A DNA stretch of 34,111 nt from the NCBI GenBank assembly GCA_001275005.1, contig JWZX01003124.1:1-34111 (forward strand). Direction: 5' to 3'. The DNA is from Chrysochromulina tobinii (Eukaryota; Haptophyta; Prymnesiales; Chrysochromulinaceae). Each line of letters begins with the position of its first letter. The first letter of the stretch is position 1. Below are positions 2,162-34,111 of the stretch, one piece after another. A program made the position numbers and the translations under genes. The notes beneath the pieces were generated by a model, which was given only the letters and a program-made list of their open reading frames with translations, did not search any database and had not been told where the DNA came from.

Positions 2162-4221
2162 TCAGGCGGCCGAGACGCGCGTCGTGCGACGCTCAGGCAT
2201 CGCTTGGTACATGGCGATCGCCTGTGCCGCCTCTGCCTCCTCGAGGTCCTCCTCATCTCCATCGTCGTGGACCGCGCGGAAGAGGGCCGGCTCGCCGTCA
2301 GTTTCGTCGGCCGGGAGCCATTTGGAGATGCGTGCGAGCACGGTGCGCTTGCCGAAGCGACGCGCGATCTTGGCGCCTACGAACTTGTGCCCATCTGGAC
2401 GCCACTCGGCTCGCTCCATAGCGAGCCTGCCAAAACAGGCAAGCCCCTCCTCCACCTCGGCTTCCACCAAGTCCTCCTCGTCCGCGTCGTCGTGCACGGC
2501 CCGGAACAGAGCCGGCTCCGTCTCGGGGTTCTCCCCGGCCGGCAGCCACTTGATGATCGTCGCGAGCGCGAACTGCACTCCCCCGCGCGCACCGTCAAAC
2601 GGGCGCGCCACTCGGCTGCCCACGAACCGATGGCCTTCGAGACGCCACACCTCGGGTGCGCCGGCCGAGGGGCCGACGCCTTCGGCGGCCGCGGCCTCGC
2701 TGAAGGCCGTGAGCGCCGTCTCGAGCTCGTTCTGCTCGAGCTCCTCCCTGTCGCCGTCGTCGTGTCGCACCAAAAAGAGCGAAGGATCGCCTTCGGAAAG
2801 GTCAGGCGGCAGCCACTTGACCACGGTACCGTACACGCGCGCTCCCTCGAAGAGACGACACACGCGCTGCTGCAGCGCGCGGTGGCCGACCTGCGGCCAG
2901 AGAGGCGATCAGAGAGGACCATGAGGCAATCCGAAGGCAATCCGAAGGCAATCCGAAGGCGCTTCGATGACAAGCAGCGCACCTTGAGCCAGCGCGTCTC
3001 CCTCGGTGCCAGGGTTTCATAGTCCCCACGCGCGTCCGCAACCTCCGCCTCCTCGAGGTCCTCCTCATCTCCATCGTCATGAATGGCGCGGAAGAGGGCC
3101 GGCGCGCCGCTTGCCTTGCATCCAGGCAGCCAGCGCACGATCGTGCCGAGCACCAGCCGTCGACCGAAGAGTCGAGCGACCCTTCTGCCAATATACACGT
3201 GGCCCGTGGCAAGCATCCGATCAGCCGCGAGCGGCGCGGGCTTCGCCTTCTTCGGCGCCGGCTTCGCCTCGTCCGCCCCCTCGCCCCGCCGATACGGCTT
3301 GAGAAGGCCATACTCACGATTGAGGTCCGTCTCGTCCGGCTCGCAATAGTTGATGCCGATCGACGAGGCGCGGCGCGAGCCGGGTTTGACGATCTCATGA
3401 GAGCATGGGCCGAGGTGGTGGTTCGGGAACATGCACCCGGGCGAGTCGCACATGCCCGGCACGTGCCAAAACACCTCGACGCCCTCGGCCACAGCAGCGG
3501 CTGCCAGGCGGCCTCCGCGGGAGCTACCTTGAGAGCTACCGCGCAGCCGAGCGCGTTGTTCGACGGCCTTCTCGAGGGCGGCGCGCCGCTGCAGGGCGCT
3601 CTCGAGGCTCGCATCATCCGCGGTGCGTAGCGAGCTCTTGCGCGCCTTGACCTGCTCGAGCACCGCCGCCGTCGCCGCATCCCGCTCGGCTCTTGCCTCC
3701 TGCCGTGCCCGCTTCTGCTGCTCGGCGCGCTCGGCGCGCAGCGCTCGCATCTCCGCGTCGCGCTCGCGTCGCGCCTGCGCGACGAGCTGCTGGCGCGCCT
3801 TGCGCTCGGCCTCGCGCTTCACGCGCTCTCGCGCCGCGCGCTCGCGCTCGCGCTGCTCGATGGCCTCGCGCTTCAAGCGCTGTTTCCGCTGCACCTCACG
3901 GCGCGCCTCCGCGGCCGCCTCCTCGGCCTTGCGCCGATCAGCCTCCTCCTTCGCCTGCTTGGCGGCCATGTCGGCGAGAATCCTGGAGCGCTCCGACTCC
4001 GGGCGCGCAGGCACGCTCATCGGCCTCGCCGCGCGCTTCGGCGGCTTCCTCCGGCCATTATTTTGCTGCTTGGTGCCCGACGAGCCCGCCTCTTTCATGC
4101 TCGCCACAGCGTCGAGCAAGCCGAGGCTCTCGAGCACGGCGCGGTTCTGGCTGATCGTCGCGAGCCGCTGCGCCTCGTATGCCGACATCGGCGGCGTGTT
4201 TGCTGCTCTGGTCGCTGGCAT
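2162..4221 (-). CDS. Protein with four Tudor-like repeats and a Cys/His knuckle, 655 aa
   Basis: Two exons, 4221-2983 and 2890-2162, join in phase 0 across a 92-bp intron (GTGCGC...CGCAG). Residues about 75-225 form a highly charged Arg/Glu/Ala coiled coil. About 253-275 is a compact CDSPGCMFPNHHLGPCSH motif, probably zinc-binding. Four copies of one module follow, near 339-395, 413-470, 498-560 and 580-635. Each has GH.(x)G.(R/K)VAR.F, then V.G.I.(K/R)WLP, PALFRA and HDDGDEEDLEE. The (Y/H)DDGD.E.L core with a preceding W resembles Tudor/agenet-type histone-tail readers, so a chromatin or nuclear role is inferred. The second copy is completed only by the splice, which supports the model. A second Met at 4188 is an alternative start. 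It is divergent from the PITH gene, 146 bp away. Confidence 0.8.
2891..2982 (-). other. Minisatellite-type intron, 11-bp unit x3
   Basis: Intron of the Tudor-repeat gene. On the sense (minus) strand it contains three exact tandem copies of the 11-mer CCTTCGGATTG, followed by related CTCTGATCGCCTCTCTGG, and ends CGCAG. Unit sequence and orientation match the other repeat-built introns of the window. Confidence 0.85.
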
Positions 4222-30369: not shown

Positions 30370-33214
30370 ATGAACGCGCTGATCCGCGTCGGCGCGAACA
30401 CCATTAATGCCATCATGGGCGCCGCGACGCCCGCGCGGCACATTGTTGAGGATGCGCTGCGCCGCTCGAGCGGCGACGTGGGCACGGCGCTCAACCTGCT
30501 ACTCGATGCACAGCCAGAGGAAGTCTTCTCTCCGCCGCCACCGCCGCCCTCGTTCTCGCCGTATGCGGCGCCTGCGGCAGATCACGCTGCCGCCACGGCT
30601 GGCGCCTCCGGAGCCCACGCGGCTAACGCCATCGACCTGGACGACATAGATGACAGCGTGCCAGCTGTGCGTGTCCCGCCACTCGTCGCATGCTCGGCAC
30701 CGCCTGCCGCAGCACCATCACCAGCACCAGCGCCGGCACCGGCAGCGCGGCAGCCGCGAGATGGTGGCAGCCCTGCCTCCACCTCGGCCTCCGCCTCAGC
30801 CTCCGCCTCGGCCTCCGCTTCGGCCTCCGCCTGCGCGTACGCTGGTGGTGGTGCGGCCTTCACGGGCGCAAGCGCGGTCACGGGCGCGAGCGCTGCCGCC
30901 GCGGCAGTGTGGCCCAAGCTGCTCGCTCCACCAGCGGAGGTACGAGCCCTTTCTCTCTCGCGCATCCGTGAGGGCGAGGTGCTCGAGGACGAGCCTCTCA
31001 CCCTGAAACGTCAAGCCGCGCCCTCCAAGCCCGCCGCCAAGCGAGGGGGTGGAGGCGGCGGCAGCGGCGGCGGCGGCGGGCGTGGCGGTAGCGGCGGCGC
31101 GCGCGGTGGCGGCGGCGCGCGCGGCAGCGGAGCCTCCAGAGGTCCTTTCTTCAAAGCTGCGGCGCCGCCCACGAACAGCATCCTTCGCTTCTGCTCGGCG
31201 CGAGGGTCGGAGCTCGGCCGATTGCCTCTTGAGCTCGCAGAGTGCCTCGCTCCGCTCTTGGACACGCACCGGGCCTCAGTCGAGCTCTCGGCCGGCCGGC
31301 TGCCCCCCGGCGGCCTGGGCATCATGGACGCATTCCCGCTGCGCATCAAGATCTGGCTCGAGCGCGCGGCGTTCACTGACGACCTCGCCGCCGCCGCGTC
31401 CGCGGGCGTCGATGCAAGCGAGACGGCGGCCGCGGCCACGGCGCGTCGGTACGCGCTCGCTTTAAGTCGGCTGGTCCAGCATGCATGCGTCGGCTGGCCC
31501 AGCATGCATGTGCTCACCACGACGCTCTGCTCCCCACAGGTATGCGCTCAGTCGGCTGGTCCGGCAGCTCCGGCTGCCGCCCGAGATCGCCCCCGCCACC
31601 GATCCGCACGCAGGCCTCGACGTGGGAGCCGACAGCGTCGAGGTCGGCGGCGGTGGCGGCGGCGGTGGCGGCGGCGGTGGCGGCGGTGGCAGCGGCGGCG
31701 GCGGTGGCGGCGGTGGCGGTGGCGGCGGTGGCGGCGGTGGCGGCGGCGGCGAGGCGGACGAGGAGAGCCTCTCGGTCGAGCAGTTGCACTCGGTCTACCA
31801 TCAGCTGGGTTGCGACCCGACGCAGCTGAGCCGCTTTGACGCGCCGCAGCCCACCGCCCTCGCCTCGACGCTACACGAGTACCAGCGACAGGGCGTGGGA
31901 TGGATGCGCTCGCGAGAGACCCTCGGGGCGCCGGTACGGCGCTCCGAAGGCAGCGGAACTGGTGGCCCCGGCGCCAGCGGCGAGGGCGGCGGCGGCGGCG
32001 GCGGCGGCACGCTGGTCGCAGAGAGCCTGGCCCCAATGTGGGGAAAGTGGCGGCTGCAGTGCGGCACCCCTTTCTACATTCACGTGGCCTCTGGCGCCGC
32101 GAGCCTCACGCCGCCCTCGGATGCTGGCACGCCGCGCGGCGGCATCCTCGCTGACGAGATGGGACTAGGGAAGACACTGCAGGTGATTGGCACCATCTTG
32201 GCGGACCTTGAGGCTCTCGAGGGTGCGGTGGCCAACGTGGAGGCCAACGGGGATGGAAAGGCGAGCGCTCTCCAGACGGCGGATGGAAAGGCGAGCGCTC
32301 TCCAGACGGTGGATGGAGCTGCGGCAGAGGAAGCGGCGGACGAGGCGCCCACCACGGCGGACGAGGCGCCCACCACGGCGGACGAGGCGCCCACCACGGC
32401 GGACGAGGCGCCCACCACGGCGGATGAGGCGCCCACCACGGCGGAGGTGAAGCAGGAGGCGATGGCGTCGCCGCCACGCCCGCTGCCAACTTGCACTGCC
32501 TTTGACGAAGGGTACGTGAGCTCACCCGAGATTCTCTTCCGTGATGAGCAAGGCGAGTGGCAGGTTCGTCCACCGCGCAGTGCGCAGCGCCGAGCGTCGA
32601 CACCGCCGGTGCCGCAACCGAGCGCCGTGTCGAGCGAGGCAGCAAGCGCAGCCGACGCGGCAGAGGCGAAGGCGGAGGAGGTCGAGGAGGAGCGTGGGGG
32701 AGATGAGGAGGAGGTTCACGTAGGCAGGCGGCGCAGCAGCAGCGCTCGACACAGCGCTGGCCGCCGCCGCAGTGCGCACAAGCGCCGAAGGACGCATCTC
32801 GAAGAGGAGGTGGATGAGGATGAGATGGTGGGAGATGATGACGAGATGTTGGAAGCGCTCGACACAGCGTCCGACACCGCGTCACGTGCTCATCACAACG
32901 CGTCACGTGCTCGCGCATCCGCACGCGATGTGCGTGCTAATGCTGCTGCTGACGCCAGGGTAGCAGCCGCCTCCGCATGCACCGCCTCCGCGGCCTGTGC
33001 CTCCGCGGCCTGTGCCTCCGCGGCCTGTGCCTCCGCGGCCTCCGCGGCCTCCGCGGTCTCCGTGGCTCACTCGAGCTCAGAAGAGGCTTCGTCAAACTTG
33101 GCGCGCGCAGCAGAGGCTTCGTCAAGCGTGGCGCTCAACTCGGCGCGCAGCCGGCCGCGGCGCCGGTGCAGCCAACATGCCGTCTACGTCGGGCTAGATG
33201 AGAGCGACGATGAG

Positions 33215-33247
<33 letters not shown>

Positions 33248-34111
33248 CGTTGCTTGCGGAGTGGCGGCGCGCGCGCGCAGGGCAAGCGCTCACGCGATCA
33301 GCCACCGGCGGCAGCGGCGTCGGCCTCGTCAGCAGCCGCGGCGGCAGCGGGGCGTGGCGGCAAAGCGCGTGTCGGGCAGCGCACGATGACGACGCATGGT
33401 AAGGCGGCCTTGGGCGACGCAGGAGGACGACGAGTGGAAGGCGAGTAGTTCCGATGAGGAGGAGAAGGACGAGGAGGACGAGGACGACGAGGACAAGGAG
33501 GAGGACGATTTTGTGGCGCAGCCACGCCGCCGCCGCCTCAAGAGGCTCAGCCGCACCGCGCCCGCCGCCGTCGCCATCGACGCCAGTGACAGCGCTGTCC
33601 TGAGCGCTCTCTCCGCCTCGAGCCTCCCTACCGCCGCCGCCGCGCCGCATGGTCAGCAGCTTGCGATGCGCGGCGGGCGGCTGGTGGCAGATCGCTCGAG
33701 ATCGCTGGGCGCGCCGATCGGAAGCCGTTACAGCCGTCACAGCGTCTCGCGGCGGCCGGCGACCCTCATCGTGTGCCCGACGTCTCTACTCTCTCAATGG
33801 CACGAGCAATTGGCGCTGCACGTCGTCCCGCACCAGCTGAGCGTGTACGTGTACACCACGGCCAGCCGGCCCAGCATGCATGTGCTCACCACGACGCTCT
33901 GCTCCCCACAGGTACGTACACCACGGCCAGCACCGCACCAAGGACGCGGCTGTGCTCGCGGCGCACGACGTGACGCTCACCACATATGGCGTACTCGCGT
34001 CCGAGTTTGCCGCCTCCAAGGCCAACCAGCAGCACGAAGAGGTCGGCGGGGGCGGCAGCGCCGTCGCGGGCGCCAGCGCCGTCGCGGGCGCCGGCCACAA
34101 GGCGAGTGGAG
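30370..34111 (+). CDS. RAD5: RAD5/HLTF-type SNF2 helicase, N-terminal part (runs off the window)
   Basis: Exons 30370-31448, 31540-33844 and 33912 onward. Residues 9-47 look UBA-like (TPARHIVEDALRRSSGDVG). 266-334 is a HIRAN domain (SILRFCSARGSELGRLPLEL), which binds 3' DNA ends in HLTF. LHEYQRQGVGWM begins the SNF2 domain, and FYIHVASGAASLTPP then GGILADEMGLGKTLQVIG (about residue 560) is the Rad5-type motif I with the Walker lysine. Motif Ia follows only after about 525 low-complexity residues (TLIVCPTSLLSQWHEQL), then LTTYGVLASEF. The family uses ATP-driven fork remodelling and PCNA polyubiquitination in DNA-damage tolerance; the RING and helicase C parts would lie beyond the window. One base must be skipped near 33412-33414, or a 52-bp intron (33371-33422) used, to stay open. 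Confidence 0.87.
31449..31539 (+). mobile_element. Introner-like intron 1 of the RAD5-type gene
   Basis: 91 bp, CG|GTACGC...CCCACAG|GTATGC. Its first ~28 nt repeat, with small differences, the first ~25 nt of the next exon (GTA(C/T)GCGCTC...GTCGGCTGGTCC). Its last 44 nt (31496-31539) are identical to the end of the next intron of the same gene. An extra partial copy of GGTCCAGCATGCATG precedes that part. Splicing gives ATARRYALSRLVRQLRLP. Confidence 0.8.
31645..31750 (+). repeat. GGC/GGT tract encoding polyglycine
   Basis: About 35 consecutive codons of GGC or GGT with a few AGC interruptions, between the HIRAN and SNF2 parts of the RAD5-like protein. A replication-slippage tract acting as a flexible linker. 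Confidence 0.85.
32251..32440 (+). repeat. 30-bp x2 and 21-bp x5 in-frame tandem repeats
   Basis: 32251-32310 carries two copies of a 30-bp unit (DGKASALQT). 32336-32440 carries five copies of a 21-bp unit (ADEAPTT), nearly identical at DNA level. Both sit in the insertion between SNF2 motifs I and Ia. Confidence 0.9.
33845..33911 (+). mobile_element. Introner-like intron 2 of the RAD5-type gene
   Basis: 67 bp, AGCGT|GTACGT...CCCACAG|GTACGT. The first 22 nt (GTACGTGTACACCACGGCCAGC) repeat the first 20 nt of the next exon, with two extra bases. The remaining 44 nt (33868-33911) are identical to 31496-31539. Splicing restores LSVYVHHGQHRTKDAAVLAA, as expected for Rad5-type proteins. Confidence 0.85.

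What the first reader, a model, noticed from the sequence alone, without database searches (positions are those of the whole stretch)
31449..33914. Two introns of one helicase gene look like recent insertions of the same element with a long target duplication
Seen directly: introns 31449-31539 and 33845-33911 end in the same 44 nt (identity continues 3 nt into the exon), although they sit 2.3 kb apart in unrelated coding sequence. In each, the part before the shared 44 nt is a copy of the first ~20-28 nt of the following exon. The duplicated exon sequence supplies the donor (GTACGC or GTACGT) and the inserted piece supplies the acceptor (CCCCACAG). Established: introner elements in some algae spread as introns and can take one splice site from the target. 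Here the duplication is much longer than a normal 3-9 bp target-site duplication, so the mechanism may differ (templated repair, reverse splicing, or an element with a long staggered cut).
Basis: partly seen in the sequence, partly recalled or inferred. Interest (0 to 1): 0.88.

Follow-up and report, generated by a model that had tools for sequence, protein, structure and literature searches.

The report
Exon duplication plus copied acceptor makes introns
In the alga Chrysochromulina tobinii, many introns appear to have arisen when a tiny copied fragment carrying an intron's end landed in a gene and the exon beside it was duplicated to supply the intron's beginning.

Summary
Both introns end in the same 44 nt (+3 nt of exon), and each begins with a copy of the next exon's start. 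The genome is Chrysochromulina tobinii (gene Ctob_004919). A 24-nt core of the shared piece ("E1") has 805 exact copies, reversed control 0; 430 places run on into CCCACAG|GT. Of 146 exact copies in hand, 110 lie between direct duplications X (null 3.7%). In 63 single acceptor-bearing copies X is 16-43 nt, median 29, against 3-9 bp reported for introners and 4-12 bp in Daphnia. A related strain's DNA has X once where C. tobinii has X-E1-X. E1 also sits in frame inside an exon, in both orientations, with X, and relatives lack several units. A second, unrelated acceptor module often has the same layout (11 of 20). Some copies carry donor flanks, and nearby copies resemble each other. Best reading: template-switching repair copies acceptor modules into exons, and splicing or reading frame decides what survives. 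Insertion with long duplication is well supported; the enzyme is inferred and no RNA reads were available.

The parts
31449..31539 (+). intron 1 (91 nt, GT..AG)
   Evidence: removal keeps the frame; deposited protein joins 31448|31540
31449..31476 (+). intronic copy of the duplicated exon start (X1) of intron 1; supplies the donor GTACGC
   Evidence: alignment to the exon from 31540; right edge approximate
31540..31561 (+). exonic copy of X (X2) after intron 1
   Evidence: right edge approximate
31466..31511 (+). 23-nt tandem inside intron 1 (X-derived GTCGGCTGG plus the first letters of E1), read as an iterated template switch
   Evidence: unit starts 31466 and 31489
31496..31539 (+). E1 element, 44 nt shared with intron 2: core 31502-31525, CTCAC branch-like motif, pyrimidine tract, CCCACAG acceptor
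33845..33911 (+). intron 2 (67 nt, GT..AG)
33845..33866 (+). X1 of intron 2; supplies the donor GTACGT
33912..33931 (+). X2, exon start after intron 2
33868..33911 (+). E1 element of intron 2 (core 33874-33897)
30370..34111 (+). host gene Ctob_004919: Rad5-like SNF2 helicase with HIRAN domain, cut by the contig end
6565..6650 (-). probable second-type (E2-like) X-E-X intron on the minus strand; donor reads GC in the intronic copy
   Evidence: L045 minus, position 3436; coordinates inferred, frame not checked

Best explanation
C. tobinii gains introns by templated insertion. A staggered lesion in an exon is repaired by a polymerase that, after copying the exon end X, switches to another genomic copy of an acceptor module (E1 or E2: branch-like motif, pyrimidine tract, AG), copies it, and returns to the start of X. 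The result is X-E-X. If X begins with GT and E carries AG, the spliceosome can remove X1+E and the mRNA is unchanged. If not, in-frame insertions last best. Shown here: the X-E-X anatomy, empty sites, donor flanks in some copies, local similarity of copies, in-frame copies in both orientations. Inferred: the staggered break, a template-switching polymerase (Pol theta or MMBIR type), actual splicing, and that selection rather than targeting sets the GT start.
For: X-E-X in 110 of 146 exact-core copies in hand vs 3.7% of 297 shuffled pairings. X 16-43 nt, n=63. DNA empty site: a relative has X once where C608 has X (25 nt) + 50 nt of E1 + X; P0016, P0017 and the more distant P0019 read straight through there, P0015 carries the insert, P0018 leaves the frame earlier. 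In a second gene P0010, 99% identical where aligned, shows 3 of the 8 E1 peptides of the shared part; P0012 has a different insertion. Donor flanks: L005/L006, L032/L030, L047/L051, and an inverted L036 copy. Near copies (<6 kb) more alike: edit distance 0.367 vs 0.449, P=0.0003. Arrays, partial and patchwork copies. E2: 11 of 20 vs 1.75%. Frames agree if spliced in 35 of 48, if retained in 13 of 48.
Against: E1 recurs so often, also unspliced in exons, that a generic repair process must explain why it is the favoured template; copy number and selection may not suffice. Its left end clusters: in 59 of 88 rows X ends within 5 nt of the core, as an element end would. No fold explains that. Microhomology was seen case by case, not tested statistically. 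36 of 146 copies gave no ungapped X, and 49 of 116 X-E-X copies, array units and window intron 2 among them, did not meet my rule for a restoring GT/GC..AG pair. Frames disagreed with splicing in 13 of 48. Donor flanks are clear in only a few of the 24 pairs that scored. Family-A polymerases exist but none was shown to be Pol theta.
Confidence: 0.6

Rival explanations
1. E1 is a minute non-autonomous transposon (introner) moved by an unidentified transposase or integrase with an unusually long, loose stagger.
For: Hundreds of dispersed near-identical copies; target duplications; donor taken from the duplication as in known introners (PMC9860276, passages); left end clustered at the core (59 of 88).
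Against: X varies 16-43 nt; no inverted repeat joins the ends of the two window copies, only local palindromes; right end varies; donor flanks in some copies; an unrelated module shares the layout.
Confidence: 0.17
2. Target-primed reverse transcription of intron-bearing RNA: a nick at the left edge of X primes on the module's 3' end, and the second nick leaves a long duplication.
For: Variable long duplications; a copy truncated on its left (beside the L067 copy); the acceptor end kept in spliced copies.
Against: L030 matches upstream exon letters of L032, so an excised intron is not its template (read by eye); copies without the acceptor end; inverted local copy at L036; local clustering of variants. 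Unspliced RNA as template is not excluded.
Confidence: 0.15
3. Plain short tandem duplication of exons, with the module later spread among them by gene conversion.
For: Arrays are common (46 of 116 array-like); the two window copies are identical over 44 nt.
Against: In the empty sites read, X is single, with no X-X stage; X differs between loci.
Confidence: 0.05
4. Ordinary old introns that share a conserved splicing signal.
For: E1 contains a branch-like motif, pyrimidine tract and AG (motif recalled).
Against: In-frame exon copies in both orientations; in bystander copies core and X change alike, 27 of 552 vs 36 of 659; empty sites.
Confidence: 0.03

Closest known systems
Introners (Gozashti et al. 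2022, PMC9860276; passages read)
   Same: Similar introns dispersed in one genome; the element can carry the 3' splice site and take the 5' splice site from the target duplication; mRNA length usually unchanged.
   Different: TSDs given there for characterised families are 3-9 bp; here 16-43 nt and variable. Only the 3' part is shared, no inverted repeat joins the ends, some copies carry donor flanks, and the element also persists in frame in exons. The Chrysochromulina sp. example there has 4-bp TSDs and carries the 5' splice site. Supplements not seen.
Staggered-break neointrons of Daphnia (PMC4202315; passages read)
   Same: [quoted passage not shown] break repair proposed.
   Different: Repeats there are 4-12 bp; the passages read name no recurring inserted module. 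Here two modules recur hundreds of times.
Intron gain by tandem genomic duplication (PMC4974935; search listing and start of abstract only)
   Same: A tandem duplication in a gene gives rise to an intron.
   Different: Here an acceptor module lies between the copies.
Templated insertions by polymerase theta (PMC8654963; passages read)
   Same: Patchwork inserts from repeated primer-template switching; tandem duplications.
   Different: In the passages read the inserts map to break flanks; intron gain is not mentioned there.
Propagating fungal stwintrons (PMC12403724, PMC8469720; passages read)
   Same: Recent spread of sequence-similar introns.
   Different: Seamless, no target duplication found, with terminal inverted repeats.

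Membership tests
Introner | Group of similar introns at many places of one genome | tested here: met
   805 exact cores, 430 places followed by CCCACAG|GT; only the 3' part is shared
Introner | Insertion creates the intron at a previously intronless site | tested here: met
   DNA empty site vs C608, supported by P0016-P0017; one site only, splicing inferred
Introner | TSD of 3-9 bp where present | tested here: not met
   X 16-43 nt, median 29, n=63
Introner | Terminal inverted repeats (72 of 177 families in PMC9860276) | tested here: not met
   no inverted repeat of 6 nt or more joins the ends of the two window copies; fold z -0.35 to 1.06
Introner | Spliced out of RNA | not testable with these tools
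   no RNA reads; deposited model for one intron and frame agreement only
Non-autonomous DNA transposon (MITE) | constant TSD length and fixed element ends | tested here: not met
Staggered-break neointron (Daphnia type) | direct repeat of adjacent exon at the opposite intron end | tested here: met
Staggered-break neointron (Daphnia type) | repeat length 4-12 bp | tested here: not met
Pol theta / MMBIR templated insertion | insert copied from another locus with its flank | tested here: met
   L005/L006, L032/L030, L047/L051, L036; direction of copying inferred
Pol theta / MMBIR templated insertion | microhomology at junctions above chance | tested here: inconclusive
   single cases of about 6-10 nt read by eye; no statistic
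LINE/SINE (TPRT) | poly-A or repeat tail and reverse transcriptase dependence | tested here: inconclusive
   no A tail in the copies read; enzyme dependence not testable

The most novel reading that the evidence does not exclude
A whole genome gains introns as a by-product of DNA repair: the exon duplicates itself to make the donor, and a portable branch-site/acceptor fragment, not a transposon, is copied in from another intron. The spread of the fragment is then driven by copy number and by survival through splicing or reading frame.
Probability: 0.4. Interest if true: 0.93.

Novelty: new variant of a known kind. Interest (0 to 1): 0.86.

Why it matters
How introns arise at new sites is an old open question, and most known introners point to transposons. 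Here one alga holds hundreds of insertions with readable target duplications, some with empty alleles, in-frame siblings in exons and traceable donors. That lets mutation be separated from splicing selection, and the repair and transposon models be tested directly.

Tried and rejected
A hairpin in E1 as a polymerase stop: rejected, DNA folds no better than shuffles. Extra constraint on the core: a binned comparison suggested it, but that sample was chosen by core similarity; in 23 bystander rows core and X change alike (27 of 552 vs 36 of 659; one row is a spurious opposite-strand match). Second copy of the window gene: none among the matches listed; only the E1 part of the query matched elsewhere (40 of 88 candidates scored), and the longer query was swamped by GGC repeats. 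Contigs first taken as alleles were identical over the stretches compared (C65/C498, C101/C235) or showed no match to each other beyond 60 letters (C8/C248, C37/C421, C396/C514). Viral carriage: one IMG/VR contig, L077, whose last ~375 bases are algal; its other part was not identified (no Pfam match in the one frame tried) and the contig is read as chimeric. The single genome-contig hit, in a Clostridia MAG (L078), was read by eye as a chance match in a coding stretch. rRNA typing got no answer; the species came from the protein search. Literature: no paper of this library holds both 'Chrysochromulina tobin' and 'introner'; judged by their listings, searches show no description of this layout. 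Supplements of PMC9860276 could not be read, so C. tobinii may be listed there.

Full report
What was checked. The two introns lie in a gene on contig C1965 of a 53.15-Mb genome held in 2,253 contigs. They share exactly 44 nt before the exon and 3 nt after. Each intron begins with a copy of the next exon's start, at scores that none of about 5,000 random window positions reach. Spliced, the coding frame continues across both; the lengths, 91 and 67, would break it if kept. A protein typed from these exons, with low-complexity stretches left out and a frame break at 33400-33420 bridged, has HIRAN and SNF2 domains. The best database match is Ctob_004919 of Chrysochromulina tobinii, on a contig of the same length, 34,111; this deposited protein joins 31448|31540, differs from my model elsewhere, and ends before intron 2. 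The published models used RNA-seq among other evidence (PMC4580454, passages), so this is support, not proof, of splicing.

The family. I call the shared piece E1. Its 24-nt core GCATGCANGTGCTCACCACGRCGC occurs 805 times exactly (402 + 403), and its A/T form 1,557 times with at most one mismatch (747 + 810), against 0 for the reversed pattern in both. In 430 places the core is followed within 2-28 nt by CCCACAG|GT. These counts include some contigs held twice. The window's own variant is rare: with up to three mismatches, a 34-nt stretch of it is found at these two sites and two others only. That fits copying between the two introns or from one near source.

The duplication. I had 146 distinct exact A/T-form copies with enough flank, partly picked by likeness to the window and partly in contig order. 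Of these, 110 lie between ungapped direct repeats X; shuffled pairings give 3.7% of 297. By source it is 35 of 44, 21 of 30 and 54 of 72. A gapped alignment on 132 copies gives 97, against 7.2% of 643 shuffled pairs. The copies without X include gapped cases such as window intron 1. Allowing wider overlaps, 116 copies qualify, 46 of them array-like (X-E-X-E-X) and 93 with an acceptor. In the 63 single copies with acceptor, X is 16-43 nt, median 29, and the repeat period, which is the intron length, 63-93 nt, median 78. The lower bound may reflect the shortest intron the cell can splice, so selection may trim the visible X range. By my rule 67 of the 116 have a donor-acceptor pair that restores the exon; 49 do not, among them array units and window intron 2, whose X is shifted by an indel. 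Of the 67, 48 could be tested for frame by stop codons and third-position GC: frames agree if spliced in 35, if retained in 13. For lengths not divisible by three it is 27 of 38 against 5 of 38.

Empty sites. A metagenomic contig, L077, ends in about 375 bases of Chrysochromulina-like DNA, 97% identical to C608 of C. tobinii over the first 105 and 85% with gaps over the rest. There the relative has ...CTGA|GTGCGAGCTCGTGGCGAGCGTTACC|GGCC... once. C. tobinii has that 25-nt stretch, then 50 nt of E1 ending in CCCCACAG, then the stretch again with one change. L077 looks like a chimeric assembly, so I looked further. Of 756 proteins found (best 120 listed) I read five: P0016, P0017 and the more distant P0019 read straight through the site, P0015 carries the insert in frame, and P0018 leaves the frame before it. 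Whether these come from DNA or RNA is not stated.

A second gene gives more. L130 (C343:1970-3190) is one open frame of 406 codons with six exact E1 cores, one of them inverted to the other five; the five A/T-form cores tested all have X. Its peptides show E1 in both orientations and in more than one frame. P0010, 99% identical where aligned, shows 3 of the 8 E1 peptides in the shared part; at two of the three places concerned it has X once and no E1, at the third one unit instead of three. P0012, more distant, covers two of the three places, has none of those units, and has a different insertion of its own. So insertion is recent, does not need splicing, and goes from X to X-E-X. No sister copy lacking the window's own introns was found, and the C. 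parva protein P0004 does not show its gene structure.

Two ways to survive. Copies without a CACAG-type acceptor have a period divisible by three in 15 of 23, against 18 of 63 single copies with acceptor (Fisher P = 0.003). The 23 include array units and four copies with some other acceptor. Collapsed by hand to 16 events it is 11 of 16 (P = 0.004), one of the 11 being a doubled core rather than an exon repeat; per locus it is 7 of 12 (P = 0.07). This is consistent with selection keeping either spliceable or in-frame insertions, but not conclusive.

A second module. TGATTGCCTCCCTCATCAGGT, unrelated to E1, has 590 exact copies. Of 20 fetched, 11 pass the same kind of test, against 1.75% of 400 shuffled pairs; 7 of those 11 begin exactly at the GT. 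Both modules hold a branch-like yUnAy motif (CTCAC; CTGAT), a pyrimidine tract and AG; the branch reading is recalled consensus, not tested. The shared layout of two unrelated modules speaks for a general process.

Donors. Of 132 copies, 24 pairs from different loci score for likeness left of the core; I read four cases as clear. L006 (contig C761) shares 30 identical letters with L005 (C839), about 20 of which belong to L005's own X. L030 (C1829) matches L032 (C1726) through L032's intron and some letters of its upstream exon. L051 carries X of L047. In L036 an inverted copy carries the X of its neighbour. These show copying of unspliced sequence with variable left ends; the direction is inferred. 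Modules within 6 kb on one contig resemble each other more than others do: mean edit distance of the pyrimidine part 0.367 against 0.449 when shuffled, P = 0.0003, 34 pairs among 91 representatives of the 97 matches used. In the window, intron 1 itself holds a 23-nt tandem of exon letters plus the first letters of E1, as if a polymerase switched twice.

Mechanism. I favour template switching during repair of staggered lesions (0.6). It explains variable X, variable E ends, donor flanks, arrays, patchwork and local similarity. It does not by itself explain why E1 is so favoured as a template, or why in 59 of 88 rows X ends within 5 nt of the core. A transposase with a loose stagger and reverse transcription of unspliced RNA remain open. 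Tested and not supported: a hairpin in E1, inverted repeats joining its ends, and special constraint on the core.

What is known. Introners whose target duplication lends the donor are known; TSDs of 3-9 bp are given for characterised families (PMC9860276, passages). Daphnia neointrons carry 4-12 bp repeats of the adjacent exon, ascribed to staggered breaks (PMC4202315, passages). A survey of 213 introns gives 4-30 bp repeats at borders, mean 11.4 (PMC11782384, abstract), so single repeats of up to 30 bp are on record. I found no account of the present layout or of introners in C. tobinii in this library. I rate it a new variant of a known kind: it works like an introner and like a staggered-break neointron, but does not meet the TSD-length and TIR features of the first or the repeat length of the second.

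Noticed in passing
L130 (G000:C343:1970-3190), minus strand: One open frame with many E1 copies in both orientations read as peptides (RRGEHLHA, HASAHHGA, VVSTCMH); near relatives lack several of them. Mobile sequence seems to be turned into protein.
   Followed up: partly
L077:4180-4554: An IMG/VR contig ends in Chrysochromulina-like DNA; probably a chimeric assembly.
   Followed up: partly
window 33400-33420: The helicase frame changes here: a 24-nt GT..AG stretch, an indel in the assembly, or a very short intron.
   Followed up: no
L062 minus strand (C40): Coding-like stretches of repeated SAHAHH and MPTTAH units that look like tandem pieces of the E1 core.
   Followed up: no
G000:C1472 and C2143: Two loci with family-A DNA polymerase domains; whether one is Pol theta was not tested.
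   Followed up: no
C65/C498 and C101/C235: Contigs with identical stretches, so the assembly is partly redundant and copy counts are somewhat inflated.
   Followed up: partly
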